A DNA stretch of 64,000 nt from Melampsora larici-populina 98AG31 (taxonomy: Eukaryota > Basidiomycota > Pucciniomycetes > Pucciniales > Melampsoraceae), in assembly GCF_000204055.1 (NCBI RefSeq), contig NW_006768821.1:83528-147527 (forward strand), read 5' to 3'. Shown here piece by piece: positions 17,949-24,778 of the stretch. The notes under the pieces are model-generated. The model was not told the DNA's origin. It did no database searches and saw only the letters and a list, made by a program, of their open reading frames with translations. The position numbers and the translations under genes are program-made. The stretch's first letter is position 1. Each line of letters begins with the position of its first letter.

Positions 17949-18048
17949 CAAGGGTCCGTTCGGCTGCACATCTGGAGACCATCTGACCGTCATCTGTCAC
18001 CAAAAATCAGGATGACAATCTCTTTGCCCGACCCCGACTGGGCAGAAG

Positions 18049-18252
18049 GCTAAGCTTAACTAAGCCCCTCTCCCGCGGCTGCGTCCGCGACCTCGGAGAG
18101 GGGCTTACCGCAGACTCGGGTTTTTTGGCGGAGGACTTCCAAGAATTAAGTACTGTTAAGTACTTTCTTCAACTTTCCCTCAACACCTCTCCACAAAAAG
18201 TCCCAGATATCTCGTATGTTGTTCTTCAAAGAGTTCTACATATTTTGGTACT
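18049..18252 (+). repeat. left terminal inverted repeat (204 bp)
   Basis: Pairs with 24350-24554. It contains the 45-base hairpin at 18062-18106, then AATTAAGTACTGTTAAGTAC (itself with GTACTNTTAAGTAC symmetry) and ends at TTTTGGTACTA. Confidence 0.92.
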
Positions 18253-18571
18253 ACACACTTGTGGTTTACTCTGAAGCAAGGATTGCAGAATGTGTGGTAA
18301 GCTTTATTGTATGTGTAGCTGTATTTGTCAGTCAAAAATCCCGGAAATGATTATTGGGGTCAAAACTCCAAAATTCCGGGCAAAACCTATTTGGGTTTTG
18401 TCTTATTTTTGCCTTGTTAGTAGGCTGAGCACGGTGGGGTTATGTATGGGCTCTTGTGGTTGCGCGCCCTTGTGTGGACCACAAAAAATTGGTAAAAAAA
18501 TTGTGAGAGGTTGTTGCTTGACAACTGAGGGGGGCGGGAGGCTGCCCTTCAGAACGTAACGTTGTGAAAAG

Positions 18572-21514
18572 ATGCAACATCAAGAAAACAGCCTGCGTCC
18601 TCCCATCGAGCAAGAAAGAAACATTCGACAGCGTCCCTTCATCGAGTCAATTGCCGTGCAGCTATGTACTACTGCAAAACAACATCAGACCTACGCTAAA
18701 GAGGTCTTCTACTCTTTTTTATGTTCGGATAATCCAGTTCTGAAAGAAAGTCGTCAATACTGGGGTATTGAAAGGGGTCTAAATTCCACTTTTCAGATTG
18801 TGCGTGCAATCAAGACTCTCACTCACCAAAGTGAGGAAGGCCGGGCTGCGTGGTGCAAATTCATTTTGACTGAGGTGAGCATTCTTCGCGTTCTTTTGTC
18901 TTTACTCATATATATTTATTATTGATGGTGGTTGTGATAGGCGCAGGAACAGATTCAACACGAAATCGAGTCCAAACCTCGAAGTTTTTACAGTTCAAAG
19001 AAGATCACAACCGAGTTCTTTGAGCTTGGTCAATTATACGCGCGCGATAAAAAAATCAGGGAATCAATGCCCTTTTTGTGGAACCTTATGTATCATCAAA
19101 TGTCTCTTCAAGCAAATAATCGTGTAGCTCTAATGGCCGGCGCGTCGCGCAGCAACGTTTGGGACACGTTGGAAGAGGAAATTCCAGAAACAGAACCGAT
19201 TGATGATTCAGGTCTTACTGTTGAAACCGTTGGTGAGAGGGAAGCCCGTCATGATGAGGAAATGTTGTATGTACCAGAAGACAAACACATTGCCGAAAGA
19301 GACCGAGCAAATCTAGCAAGTACTTTTTCTAATTCACTATTTATCATCAGTCCTCAAACTTATGTTTGAAATATCTTCAGGTTGCGACCACAATATGCGG
19401 CATGATCTCGTACATGTCTAATTACCGGGATAACGCGCTCCAGCTGCACAACGCTTTGACTTTCATCGCGACGGGAGTGTCTGATAGAGTATTTCAATAC
19501 TTGAATACTCTAGGTCTGTCCAGTTCTCGCGATACAGCATTAAGGGCTCTAAATCATCTCAGAACCGTGCGAGAGGCCTCTCTACGAGCTATTATGTCCC
19601 AGTCTTATAGCATAAGCCCGATCATATGCATTGACAACTTCGATATATTACAAAGGGTTCACAATACCCGTGTAGAGACTGTGTCCCATCTATTCCATGG
19701 GACATGGGGCTATATTCAGTTTTTACCGAAATGCTTAGATAAAGACATCTCGAAAGATAATGCCAGCAATCACCTTAAAAACTACCATGAAACTCTAGCC
19801 GAAGCTCAGAATACTCCGATTCGGTTGGATACATTACGAGATCAAGCCAGCGATATGACCCAGTGGGAGTCAACTTTGAAATGTCAGCTAGCCACGGTCA
19901 TGTACAAATATATACTTAAACCTGGAACAACTCCATCGCCCAAACTAGCAACAAGGCCACCTCCAGTTGACCCGATTCCAGTGGACGATCGTCATTTGTT
20001 CCTGATGAGCCTCATGGACGCGGCCGACAACTCGGCAGACGGGGTTGCGCAGGTATTCGACGAAATCGCATCTCAATGCGGCCTCACTCTTGAAGCGATG
20101 TCAAAATGGGTTCGAATTGTCCAAGGCGACCTTGGAACGTGTCAAAATATCGAGAGTCTTCGAAAAAAAAGGTGTCCTGCCGGTACTGATGTAGGGGCCC
20201 TCAGCAGTGTTTTGACTATACCCGGTGTATCCCATATCATGTGGAACCTCGCTCAAGGGATACTATCTCACCATTGGGGTAATCCCCATGATTCTAAGGA
20301 CACCGGGGCGTGGAAAGCATGGCAGGCTTTGGGGGGATTGCAAGGTGCTCAATCTAAACTACCTTGTAACATGGATTTTGGGACAGTTATGAAAGCTCTC
20401 CACTCCGTTCACTTTGCAACTTTGGTATCTTGTTTAACGTGAGCAAAATTTGTTTAATTATGTCAGATCGAGATTTGGACTATTTGTTAATATTTATTTG
20501 TAACTATTACATATAGCTCGACCATGTCAAAATATGAAAGTCCTCCTGACCTTTCAAAAGAAGGTGTTGCCCAGGAAGTGATCAATAAATGTTACAACAA
20601 TTTTTGCAGCCCTGGTTCTTTGAAGTCGTGTAAAACTAAAGGTGACAGTTTGGGGTATAATTTGAGGCTACGGATTCGTGATTTTGCCACGGTGGTTGAA
20701 GCAGATAGTGCCACACATGCAGGTGATATTGGTAGGTTGAAGCTCATGTGGAAACGGTGGGCTTTGATGGCACATGGTTTGAAGGGCCTGCCGCGTTATG
20801 CTTTACATCTTACAAGATTCCTTGTCCTTGTGGAACAAGACCTACCTCCGCTTTTAGCAAAAGTAATATTGCACAGTATGCTTATTCCATCTGGACAGCG
20901 CCCAGGACACTTTGTAGGAAATGATCTTTGGCTTGAGTACCAAAATTTTTGGCTCAAACATTATTTCAACCAAACTGTGAGTGACCAGTGTTCAGTATTT
21001 TTCCAGTTACTCTTTGGATGAATACTGATGGGATTCTAACCCAGAGTAATGGAACAGAGATTGAAAAATTGATTGCTATGTCAATCAACATTACATTTGT
21101 ATGTCATTTTCCAGTGAATCATTGCTCGGATTTTACATTTTCACACTAATGAATCAATTTATTCCATTACCACGCTGAACACCCAATGTTCAGCTAAGAC
21201 AGCTGATACAACAATTGAAAATTCGCAGCGGACTTAAGCCGGTTTTTCAGAATCACTCCCACCAAATATCAGAACAGACACTCGCCAACTTTATCCGCTC
21301 TTGGAATCATCAATACATAACTTCGAAAATTTCCACCGTCAAATGTCAGTTTACCGATACCGTTTTAACGGGTACCAACACATTACAAGAGCACATTCTA
21401 CAAGACCGCAAAAACAAGGAGGTTTCTCGTTACCGATGGGGGTCTTTAGGAGATCAGGTGGTGGATGTAGAAGGGAGTTGTGAAGAATCGCCAGGTGAGC
21501 CTGAGGATACCTAA
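18572..21514 (+). CDS. DUF6589-type protein, candidate transposase, 856 aa
   Basis: Six exons: 18572-18874, 18941-19315, 19381-20438, 20517-20976, 21045-21098, 21194-21514. All junctions keep frame; the second intron needs a GC donor (GCAAGT). The central half resembles the uncharacterised fungal DUF6589 domain. It has ALQLHNALTFIATGVSDRVF (a helix before the core), PIICIDNFDIL with D311 and D314, VQGDLGTCQNI with D476, PGVSHIMWN with H511, then DSATHAGDIGRLKLMW and NDLWLEYQNFWLK with E719. The spacing of conserved acidic residues in D-D-E order suggests an RNase H-fold (DDE) nuclease, but that is my inference. Its sole long-gene partner inside the TIRs is the helicase. The start ATG was chosen as the first in the open frame; an upstream exon cannot be excluded. 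Confidence 0.85.
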
Positions 21515-24069
21515 GAGGCCGTTTTGTTACGTTTCGGCGATTTCCCCTTTTTACCTTGGTACGGAGGTGGTTTTCGCTTGTTGCTCTTTGTACCTTTTGA
21601 TGTCAAGGGGTCGCCTGATGCAGTCAAAGCCTGCATAGCCATTATTAAAAGTGAATAGAAAATCAAACATTAGCAATATGATATATATATATATATGATC
21701 AGATCTGCCAAGCGAGTACCTGAGCTACCATCTCAGTGTCATTTTGTGGAGCAACTATGACACTTCCGTTCTTTTTGGATTGGTTCTTTTTTGCATCGTT
21801 CTTCTTTGATTCATTCTCCTTCGCGAGAGCCTTGGCTGCGTTATACATTCTCATCTCTGCTTCTGAAGGGTGCAATACGGCAATTGAGTCAGTACTTGCC
21901 TTCCACGCGCGAATGTCTTGAAGTATTGAACCATATGTGTTTGGCAGTGGTTCGCTACCAAACACATCATCCAAATGTAGTCCTTGAAAAACAAAATCGT
22001 AGTTGATGCACACAGTCCAAAGTTTGATTGGCGAGAATAGGTCGTCAAGAGTATAGAAAGAATCTTTAGGATATTCAGTGTCAAATATCGCCTGCAGGTT
22101 TGATTGAATGCGCAAGTACAATCGAATCCACCGTATGTCTTGGTATAGAGGATGATCCTCACGAATCGGACGCATTTGGGTTTCGAGTGATGAATCATGA
22201 GGACTCAAATCCTCCGCGGCGAGTTTGAAATCGGGTTGATTGGCTGGAACGTCCTTCTTGAGTACCAACTCAGTAAAATTCGTAGAGGTCAAATTTTTTT
22301 GCTGAGCAAGGAAAAAATTTGCCGCATTCAGATCACAGTTCGAGCAGAGGCATGGTGCCATGCCTGCATCTGCCTGCCTTTGAGTTTCGGCAATAACGGC
22401 TTGATCGCTTTTGGACACAGGGATGTAGTTACATCTAGTTCAACGTCGAGTCAGATTTATAATGAAATTCAATATAAGACATTTATAATGTAAGAAATTA
22501 TGAGTCAAAGTGCGAACTACTCACCGTAGAAGAACCTCAAACGCGACTCGTAAACATACGTCAGTGATGCTCATCGCATGCATATGCTGGTCATTATCTT
22601 GCTGAGACTGATGCGGTAAAGCCATCAGTCTATCCTTGTCCGCCTGAGCGAGTTGATTGACTATTAGAAAAGCCACTGATGGTTGTCTGTCTCGACCCCC
22701 TCGCCCAGCCATTTGCAATAACTCCATCGGGTCTAGCTGACCCATAATGATGACCCTTCTCACACGAGTCCAATTTTGTCCTAAACCTAAGGCGTTTGTA
22801 CAGGTCATTATCGAGAACTTGCCGTTTCCAAAGTCGAGAGCACGACGAGCCTTGTCAATCGGGCAGGTTGAAGCGTGATATCGCCGGACCGATGAACTCA
22901 AGCCATTGCGAGATTCACTTGGGATGTTACGAGCTGAGTTGATTGCTTTTAGAGCTAGATACGTGTCGTTTTGAGTATGACAGTAGACAAGGCTAGGTAC
23001 TAGCTCTGAGTCACCTATTACAGAAGATGGTGCGAAAAATTTCTTGAGCAAGTCCATTGATGAAGTACCGTGTCTGTTAGAGACCCGGATGAAACGTATT
23101 TCGGGGCGAACAAGCTCGCCTCGATGGATGTCTATGTCATCTCTGGATATTTTGAGACTTGCCAGGATCTTTTCGAAATGGCGAGGTGGACACGTTGCTG
23201 ACATTAGCAGAGTCGGGACTGATTCGGTGGCTAGGAATCGCTCGATCAGATTACCGTAAGATGGCCGAAAAGCGGTGTGATCTTGCGAAATTTGAAAGCA
23301 TCGAAGATTCTTGATGCGGCCACTCAAGGCAAGGCCCCAACAGTAGATGAGGTGAGCCTCGTCGACTACCTTGAGGACCAGGCGGGTCTGAAACGCTTTC
23401 GAAAAGTAGAGACGCTCGAAATGAGTGTTATTCAAAAAAATCTCAGGTGACTATCAAACAAAAAACAGAATATGTTAGCTATACCTTCACCACATCACAA
23501 TCGGCTAAATGTTGAAGGCTTACAACATAAATAAATTGGTATTTTCCTGCGAGAATTTCTTTGTACACGATTTTAGTGAAGGATGCCCGGGTCAAATTGA
23601 TTGCCGATAGTCCATGTCTAGCCTTTTCTTCAACCTGTGCAATGAGGACAGTTTGTCAAATCGCAAACAGAGACATATTAGGAGTATAACTTACTTGATT
23701 GTCCCCAAGGGCGTCCAAAGGATTCAAAGTCAAGATGATCGGAGCGCAGGCTTTGGTAAACATCAAAAAGAACAATTCCGGTATACGAGACTTCCCGTAG
23801 CCGGTACTTGCAAGGAGAAATACGTCCCGATTTCGAACTAGACTGATTGTCGCGTCCACTTGGAGCATTCGAGCAATAACGTTATATTTGTCGTAAAATA
23901 ATTCAAGTATGACTTCACGCAGCTCTTCATCGTTGTCCTTCAGTAATAACTTTGAGATTGATGGTCGGATTCCTTTAAGAGTTGCTTTGGTGGTAGCTGG
24001 AGAGGAATCTGAGGTCTTTCCAACATGAGGCGAAGGTGGCAATATGGCTCCTTGAGAGCGAGTGATCAT
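21511..24069 (-). CDS. RecQ-like ATP-dependent DNA helicase, at least 748 aa
   Basis: Five exons, complement(21511-21630, 21720-22434, 22525-23450, 23524-23634, 23695-24069). Helicase motifs are all present: Walker A LLASTGYGKS (residues ~85-94), SPEIFLN (163-169), DEAH at 192-195, LLMSATCPP (~244-250), TNALGLGQNW (~380-389) and the arginine-finger motif QMAGRGGRDR (408-417). A CLCSNC motif lies in the C-terminal part and the tail is Lys/Pro-rich. The frame stays open upstream to 24240 and perhaps into another exon with acceptor near 24271, so the true start may be earlier; 24069 is the first ATG seen. RecQ enzymes unwind 3'-5'. Here it is probably an accessory factor of the element. Its TAG stop overlaps the TAA of the facing DUF6589 gene. 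Confidence 0.88.
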
Positions 24070-24349
24070 GACGTAGTTGGGTGAAATCAAAGTGTTGCGC
24101 GAGGATGACGGGTCTTTGGAAAGGTCGCCCACCCTAACACTTACTGCTCTAGGATATCTAAGGCCTACAGCCCCTAGGTCATAACCCTTTTGACCCAGGT
24201 TTTGGATTAGTCTCGAATTGTCCAAGAACAAATCGACCAAATCTGATTGGCCGCCTGTACACCCAATCTTAGGCTGTTACAGGAATACATAACGACCACA
24301 ATTGGTCATGGCTCCATCAATGGCAAACCAAGTCTGTTTGTGTTGAAAA

Positions 24350-24554
24350 TAGTACCAAAATATGTAGAACTCTTTGAAGAACAACATACGAGGTATCTGG
24401 GACTTTTTGTGGAGAGGTGTTGAGGGCAAGTTGAAGAAAGTACTTAACAGTACTTAATTCTTGGAAGTCCTCCGCCGAAAATCGCGTCTCTGCGATAAGC
24501 CCCTCTCCGAGGTCGCGGACGCAGCCGCGGGAGAGGGGCTTAGTTAAGCTTAGC
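24350..24554 (-). repeat. right terminal inverted repeat (205 bp)
   Basis: Reverse complement of the left end with few differences. The clearest is ATCGCAGAGACGCGATTTTC in place of ACCGCAGACTCGGGTTTTTT just inside the hairpin. Confidence 0.92.
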
Positions 24555-24778
24555 AGAAGGCCCAGTTGGATGTCAGATGAGATGGCGCAGCCGAACGGAC
24601 CCCAAGTCTCTCAAAAACCTAGATCAATATTCCAAGCTCTTTCCTATGGCAAGGGGGCATAGAAGGATAAAAAAAGTGCAAAATTTACAAGACTTTTTAC
24701 ACCTGATAGACTATCCCATGAGCTGGGAGGCAAACTCACATGAAGAATCAAAAATTGTTCATTCTGTTTGGATTAGAC

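What the first reader, a model, noticed from the sequence alone, without database searches (positions are those of the whole stretch)
18049..24554. Two-gene TIR transposon: DUF6589-type protein plus RecQ helicase
A 6,506-bp unit with ~204-bp near-identical inverted repeats, direct repeats at the borders and only two genes, both open: a DUF6589-like protein and a RecQ-like helicase. I know of no classical DNA transposon superfamily built from this pair. RecQ helicases are not normal partners of DDE transposases, so a replication- or repair-coupled mechanism is conceivable. The element would explain why DUF6589 proteins are so numerous in basidiomycetes. Structure is seen; mobility and roles are inferred.
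Basis: partly seen in the sequence, partly recalled or inferred. Interest (0 to 1): 0.92.

Follow-up and report, generated by a model that had tools for sequence, protein, structure and literature searches.

The report
Helicase-carrying DNA transposon
This stretch is a complete DNA transposon that carries a probable transposase and a RecQ-type DNA helicase; it is real and recently mobile, but it fits a helicase-carrying transposon lineage (AcademH) described in 2020, so it looks like a good new example rather than a new kind.

Summary
A 6,502-bp element (18051-24552) has ~205-bp inverted repeats (96%) and a perfect 9-bp target duplication, GCAGAAGGC. It carries two intron-containing, convergent open genes: a DUF6589 protein (856 aa) and a RecQ-like helicase (748 aa). 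Mobility is shown: it interrupts a ~140-bp MITE-like repeat of which 10 other copies run through the insertion point, and two 99.6% copies lie elsewhere with other duplications. Eleven of 12 elements with both ends located have exact 9-bp duplications. In capped searches, 67 of 114 DUF6589 loci have a convergent helicase within 5 kb, one a same-strand one, none an upstream one. Both genes are under purifying selection and co-diverge (Mantel r 0.96, 12 families). The claim that no known superfamily is built this way is wrong: AcademH (Kojima 2020) is reported to carry a helicase and make 9-10-bp duplications. The useful new point is that DUF6589 is probably the transposase. It has conserved D/D/E candidates, but its fold is unconfirmed. 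The helicase's step in transposition is inferred.

The parts
18042..18050 (.). Left 9-bp target-site duplication GCAGAAGGC
   Evidence: Exact match to 24553-24561; a query with one copy of it matches uninterrupted repeat copies
18051..24552 (.). Whole element, 6,502 bp, TAAGC...GCTTA
   Evidence: 99.6% and 99.55% identical copies at C50 and C23
18051..18261 (+). Left terminal inverted repeat (ungapped to 211 bp, 196 of 211 identical)
   Evidence: at least 41 matches to its first 204 bp in the genome
18061..18107 (+). Subterminal inverted motif TAAGCCCC...GGGGCTTA, able to form a hairpin
   Evidence: z -5.05 as single-stranded DNA; pairing kept in 89.9% of cells over 13 distinct ends, weak covariation
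18572..21514 (+). DUF6589 gene, probable DDE transposase, 856 aa; exons 18572-18874, 18941-19315, 19381-20438, 20517-20976, 21045-21098, 21194-21514
   Evidence: Pfam PF20231 3e-64
19316..19380 (+). GC-AG intron of the DUF6589 gene, inferred from reading frame
   Evidence: GCAAGT donor, AG acceptor and frames kept in the 5 sequences aligned
21511..24069 (-). RecQ-like SF2 helicase gene, 748 aa; exons 24069-23695, 23634-23524, 23450-22525, 22434-21720, 21630-21511
   Evidence: Pfam DEAD and Helicase_C; TIGR00614 1.2e-26, below its curated cut-off; PDB RecQ helicases
24342..24552 (-). Right terminal inverted repeat
24496..24542 (-). Subterminal inverted motif, right end
24553..24561 (.). Right 9-bp target-site duplication GCAGAAGGC
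17952..18050 (+). Left part of the ~140-bp MITE-like repeat into which the element inserted
   Evidence: 10 copies that cross the insertion point
24562..24602 (+). Right part of the same repeat

Best explanation
It is an autonomous DNA transposon of the AcademH type. SHOWN by sequence: it inserts as a unit, makes 9-bp target duplications, has multiplied recently, and both its genes are kept by selection and inherited together. INFERRED: the DUF6589 protein is the DDD/E transposase. It would bind the TIRs (perhaps through the paired TAAGCCCC/GGGGCTTA motifs), cut the element out and join it to target DNA with a 9-bp stagger. ALSO INFERRED: the RecQ-like helicase is a second transposition protein, most likely opening the element ends with their hairpin-forming repeats and/or driving the repair synthesis that fills the target gaps or restores the donor copy. 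Whether copy number rises by gap repair after cut-and-paste or by a replicative step is open. (Confidence lowered from 0.82 to 0.80 on re-check, because the host group, which I had counted as agreeing with AcademH, was never tested.)
For: Exact 9-bp TSDs in 11 of 12 elements with both ends located, including the divergent families L053 and L056+L051. Ten copies of the host repeat match across the insertion point when the flanks are joined with one 9-mer, 8 of the 10 with no length difference. Copies at 99.6% and 99.55% at C50 and C23 with different TSDs. 67 of 114 DUF6589 loci have a convergent helicase within 5 kb, against 1 same-strand and 0 upstream, in capped lists; for the first count, 44 of 94, uniform chance gives 0.36. 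dN/dS is 0.093-0.102 for DUF6589 and 0.140-0.149 for RecQ in the four comparisons of intermediate divergence. Mantel r is 0.96 over 12 non-redundant families, 0 of 2000 permutations, and 0.97 over the 9 that are not window-like, 0 of 2000. Conserved acidic residues include D311 29/29, D314 28/29, D476 29/30 and E719 30/30. AcademH is described as having a helicase and 9-10-bp TSDs; Academ is listed among DDD/E superfamilies.
Against: No Academ transposase sequence could be compared. The AcademH paper is not held and the large protein search was off. DUF6589 hit no known transposase family in Pfam and no PDB chain at a credible E-value (best 0.54). The only structure model is unusable (mean pLDDT 36.6). 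Eleven acidic columns are conserved at 85% or more, so picking the triad among them is a guess from motif order. 47 of 114 DUF6589 loci and 13 of 55 RecQ loci had no convergent partner within 5 kb in the lists, though 3 of the 13 have one at 5-8 kb. Of the 5 other families read at length (L051-L055), 2 gave no TIR in the fetched stretch (L054, L055). AcademH was called low-copy in fungi, whereas this genome has over 100 DUF6589 loci. The two near-identical copies give dN/dS of 0.30-0.75, on few changes. One match (L032) lacks the second aspartate. The host taxon was not tested.
Confidence: 0.8

Rival explanations
1. The DUF6589-RecQ elements are a separate transposon superfamily whose transposase is unrelated to Academ; helicase and 9-bp duplication were acquired convergently.
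For: No homology to Academ could be shown here. Pfam lists DUF6589 as of unknown function, and the protein has only two other, sub-cut-off Pfam matches at E<=1. Helicases have joined other DNA transposons, e.g. KolobokH.
Against: Helicase and TSD length coincide with the published description of AcademH.
Confidence: 0.13
2. It is a divergent MuDR/MULE element: long TIRs and 9-bp TSDs are typical of MULEs (recalled), and the helicase is an add-on.
For: TIR length and TSD length fit.
Against: No MULE or other transposase domain in the Pfam scan. [quoted passage not shown]
Confidence: 0.03
3. It is KolobokH, the fungal Kolobok lineage with a RecQ helicase.
For: RecQ-like helicase; KolobokH is reported only from fungi.
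Against: Kolobok makes TTAA 4-bp TSDs; the 11 exact TSDs here are 9 bp and none contains TTAA. The C/DxxH signature is absent.
Confidence: 0.01
4. DUF6589 and RecQ are captured cargo, and an unrelated transposase elsewhere moves the TIRs.
For: No catalytic proof for DUF6589. Short derivatives without genes have duplicated targets too (L018 exact, L020 7 of 9).
Against: The pair recurs in convergent orientation in divergent families whose TIRs share little beyond a short terminal motif, under purifying selection and co-diverging. Cargo would not be expected to behave so.
Confidence: 0.03

Closest known systems
AcademH lineage of the Academ superfamily (Kojima 2020, Mob DNA 11:15; paper itself not seen, known from passages in PMC10045372 and PMC10799480)
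   Same: TIR DNA transposon, encodes a helicase, 9-10-bp target-site duplications.
   Different: Transposase homology untested. Here the helicase is a separate convergent gene (how it is arranged in published AcademH I could not see), and DUF6589 loci are numerous (114 in capped lists), whereas AcademH is called low-copy.
AcademX lineage of Academ
   Same: Same superfamily, if DUF6589 is an Academ transposase.
   Different: AcademX makes 3-4-bp TSDs and is linked with a nuclease (passage in PMC10045372).
KolobokH (Kolobok with RecQ helicase, fungi; passages in PMC9587614)
   Same: DNA transposon with a RecQ helicase.
   Different: TTAA 4-bp TSD and C/DxxH signature, neither found here.
MuDR/MULE
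   Same: Long TIRs and 9-bp TSDs (recalled as typical of MULEs).
   Different: No MULE domain, no C/DxxH signature, helicase present.
Subtelomeric RecQ helicase families of fungi (passages in PMC4522978)
   Same: Multicopy RecQ-like helicase genes in one genome.
   Different: Those are tied to telomeres; these lie inside TIRs, tens of kilobases or more from contig ends in the seven full copies, paired with DUF6589.

Membership tests
AcademH | Target-site duplication of 9 or 10 bp | tested here: met
   Exact 9 bp in 11 of 12 elements, 7 of 9 in the twelfth; definition from PMC10045372
AcademH | Encodes a helicase in addition to the transposase | tested here: met
   RecQ-like SF2 helicase in an open gene model; Walker A and DEAH motifs seen by eye in the translation, motif names recalled
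AcademH | DDD/E transposase homologous to Academ transposases | not testable with these tools
   No Academ sequences available; paper not held, protein search off
AcademH | DDD/E catalytic residues in an RNase H-like fold | tested here: inconclusive
   Candidates D311/D314, D476, E719 among 11 conserved acidic columns; structure model unusable
AcademH | Terminal inverted repeats | tested here: met
   205 bp at 96.1%; 289 bp at 99.7% in L053 and 296 bp at 100% in L056+L051; none found in L054 and L055
AcademH | Host among the reported groups (Basidiomycota, Ascomycota, Mucoromycota; animals) | not tested
Groups from PMC10799480 and the paper's title
KolobokH | RecQ helicase | tested here: met
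[quoted passage not shown]
   9-bp, no TTAA
KolobokH | C/DxxH between second D and E | tested here: not met
   No such column pair at over 30% among 36 rows
MuDR/MULE | MULE-type transposase domain | tested here: not met
   Pfam scan at E<=1 finds DUF6589 and two sub-cut-off matches only
MuDR/MULE | C/DxxH between second D and E | tested here: not met
Helitron | No TIR and no target-site duplication | tested here: not met
   TIRs and 9-bp TSDs present; definition from PMC4522978 passage
Telomere-linked RecQ helicases | Location at chromosome ends | tested here: not met
   Seven full copies lie 62 kb or more from contig ends; contig ends need not be telomeres, and other RecQ loci were not checked

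The most novel reading that the evidence does not exclude
DUF6589 is a previously unrecognised transposase superfamily of its own, not Academ, whose elements depend on a dedicated RecQ helicase that acts directly on hairpin-forming ends during excision or copying: a numerous, helicase-dependent class of cut-and-paste or copying DNA transposon.
Probability: 0.11. Interest if true: 0.75.

Novelty: new member of a known kind. Interest (0 to 1): 0.42.

Why it matters
It gives a probable function, transposase, to DUF6589, a Pfam family of unknown function that no paper in the held library mentions by name; its accession occurs there only in a physics paper. Genes with DUF6589 next to a RecQ-like neighbour could then be masked as transposon genes instead of being counted as host genes. 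The near-identical copies and the interrupted repeat also make the element a tractable case for asking what a RecQ helicase does in DNA transposition.

Tried and rejected
Structure: AlphaFold2 on the window's own reading (one sequence; rows from genome-search loci are not on that tool's list) gave mean pLDDT 36.6 and supports no claim. Homologues outside this genome: the protein search was off; none confirmed among viral contigs (0 of 34 pattern hits) or prokaryote genome contigs (0 of 46); the DUF6589 family rings in 0 of 14 control prokaryotes. Empty site of the divergent C35 element: no second locus. A genome-wide pattern scan for the subterminal motif did not complete and was dropped. Hairpin as a conserved structure: pairing is kept (89.9% of cells) but covariation is weak (3 pairs with changes on both sides, reached by 39 of 500 shuffles), so paired binding sites explain it as well as a cruciform. 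KolobokH, MULE, Helitron and telomere-linked helicases were considered and rejected (see membership test). Of 16 element loci read, 4 gave no TSD test: only one end was found in L017 and L019, and no TIR in L054 and L055; L016 holds a further single end that I did not pursue.
Full report
WHAT IS THERE. Its ends are TAAGCTTAAC and GTTAAGCTTA, its inverted repeats match at 96.1% over 205 bp, and it is flanked by GCAGAAGGC on both sides. It holds two convergent genes. On the + strand is a six-exon gene for an 856-aa protein with Pfam DUF6589 (3e-64). On the - strand is a five-exon gene for a 748-aa protein with DEAD and Helicase_C domains. The helicase matches the NCBI RecQ-family model at 1.2e-26, under that model's curated cut-off. 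The 37 distinct PDB sequences it hits at E<=0.001 are RecQ-family helicases or plain 'ATP-dependent DNA helicase'. The two stop codons overlap. The second intron of the DUF6589 gene appears to be GC-AG, inferred from the reading frame and kept in the five sequences aligned, three of which are nearly alike. No RNA evidence was available.

IT MOVES. The first 204 bp of the left repeat have 41 matches in the genome, a lower bound. Copies at C50 and C23 are 99.6% and 99.55% identical over the full length and have different duplications. Of 16 element loci read, 12 had both ends located. Eleven of the 12 have exact 9-bp duplications, and the twelfth, a decayed 585-bp derivative, has 7 of 9. None of 132 deliberately mismatched flank pairs reaches 8 of 9. 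I set the ends, within 1-2 bp of the BLAST ends, where the direct repeat was longest. The 12 are the window, two near-identical copies, four copies at about 75% DNA identity (one enlarged to 12 kb), a family at 60% protein identity (L052), two more divergent families whose TIRs share little beyond a short terminal motif (L053, 7,409 bp; L056+L051, 8,239 bp), and two short gene-less derivatives of 168 and 585 bp. The window element sits inside a ~140-bp MITE-like repeat. When its flanks are joined with one 9-mer and searched, ten other copies of the repeat match across the junction at 88-99% identity, 8 of the 10 with no length difference and 2 with differences of 1 and 3 bases (I saw coordinates, not letters). 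This is a paralogous empty site. The same test for the C35 element found no second locus.

THE PAIR IS COMMON AND ORIENTED. The Pfam DUF6589 search gave 104 matches, merged to 94 loci; with the 150 Helicase_C matches listed, 44 of 94 have a convergent helicase within 5 kb, where about 0.36 would be expected for random placement. With the protein searches added, 67 of 114 DUF6589 loci have a convergent helicase within 5 kb, 1 has a same-strand one and 0 have one upstream; 47 have no convergent one. From the other side, 42 of 55 RecQ-like loci have a convergent DUF6589 within 5 kb and 3 more within 5-8 kb; 10 have none in the lists. All four lists score only the best candidates, so missing partners may be list limits, insertions, decay or real solo genes. 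TIRs were checked in only ten gene-bearing elements; in two other families (L054, L055) none was found in the stretch read.

BOTH GENES MATTER AND TRAVEL TOGETHER. Against four copies of intermediate divergence (three of them close to each other), dN/dS is 0.093-0.102 for DUF6589 and 0.140-0.149 for RecQ, with dS near 1 or above. Two near-identical copies give 0.30-0.75 on few changes, and three comparisons are saturated. Of 22 loci with both proteins readable, 12 remain after removing near-duplicates. DUF6589 identity and the identity of a 190-residue stretch of RecQ correlate at r=0.96, reached by 0 of 2000 permutations, and at r=0.97 over the 9 families that are not window-like, 0 of 2000. 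The helicase is therefore a long-term partner, not a passenger.

IS DUF6589 THE TRANSPOSASE? Probably. In 30 aligned loci, some of them near-copies, eleven acidic columns are conserved at 85% or more. [quoted passage not shown] That reading, and the choice of residues, is inference. [quoted passage not shown]

HOW IT MOST LIKELY WORKS. Shown: staggered insertion with a 9-bp gap, recent multiplication, maintenance by selection of two proteins. Inferred: transposase binding at the TIRs, excision, 9-bp staggered joining. The ends of the window-type families carry an inverted pair TAAGCCCC...GGGGCTTA that could fold as a hairpin (z -5.05 for the window, -4.89 for L013, -3.13 for L052, -1.62 for L053). 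Pairing is kept in 89.9% of cells but covariation is weak, so two binding sites are as good an account as a cruciform. The RecQ protein could open these ends or act in the repair synthesis that follows excision or insertion. Recalled, not from a call: the RecQ helicase BLM acts in repair after P-element excision in Drosophila. PMC10045372 suggests that helicase versus nuclease content goes with the 9-10-bp versus 3-4-bp duplications in Academ.

WHAT IT IS CLOSEST TO. I saw passages only: PMC10045372 says that AcademH makes 9 or 10-bp duplications and links this with its helicase; PMC10799480 says that AcademH was found as low-copy elements in Basidiomycota, Ascomycota and Mucoromycota; PMC9587614 describes KolobokH with RecQ, and Kolobok with TTAA duplications. 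The AcademH paper itself (Kojima 2020) is not held. Helicase, duplication length and TIRs fit AcademH; transposase homology and host group could not be tested. KolobokH and MULE each fail a tested feature. In the held library, DUF6589 occurs in no paper and PF20231 only in an unrelated physics paper. The other searches listed no title that names a DUF6589-RecQ pair; one search showed 15 of 22 papers and 21 of 22, and I read passages of nine papers in all.

VERDICT. What seems new is the probable link between DUF6589 and that lineage and the large number of such loci in one genome.

Noticed in passing
window 17952-24602: The element interrupts a ~140-bp MITE-like repeat (ends GGGTCCGTTCGGCTGC) with 10 other copies at 88-99% that cross the insertion point.
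   Followed up: yes
L018:868-1035: A 168-bp derivative made of the two element ends only, with an exact 9-bp duplication.
   Followed up: partly
G000 C16:1318113-1321901, C29:485135-488923, C82:289478-293266: Three copies of another DUF6589-RecQ family with identical scores and 44% identity to the window proteins: possibly a second recent burst.
   Followed up: partly
L015 and L016 (C23:274783-286776): A family member enlarged to 11,993 bp by about 4.9 kb of extra DNA between element positions 839 and 871 and about 0.6 kb between 6046 and 6181.
   Followed up: no
G000 C19:641477-642547: A DUF6589 match whose open frame is reported as 3,557 aa, far longer than the others listed; possibly a neighbouring long gene, a host gene that took up the domain, or an artefact.
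   Followed up: no
G000 C3:2551673-2556690: The only DUF6589 locus with a same-strand helicase downstream; L017 suggests that the helicase belongs to a neighbouring window-like element.
   Followed up: partly
L032:1501-2658: A DUF6589 match in an open frame in which the conserved second aspartate is asparagine, so possibly an inactive copy.
   Followed up: no
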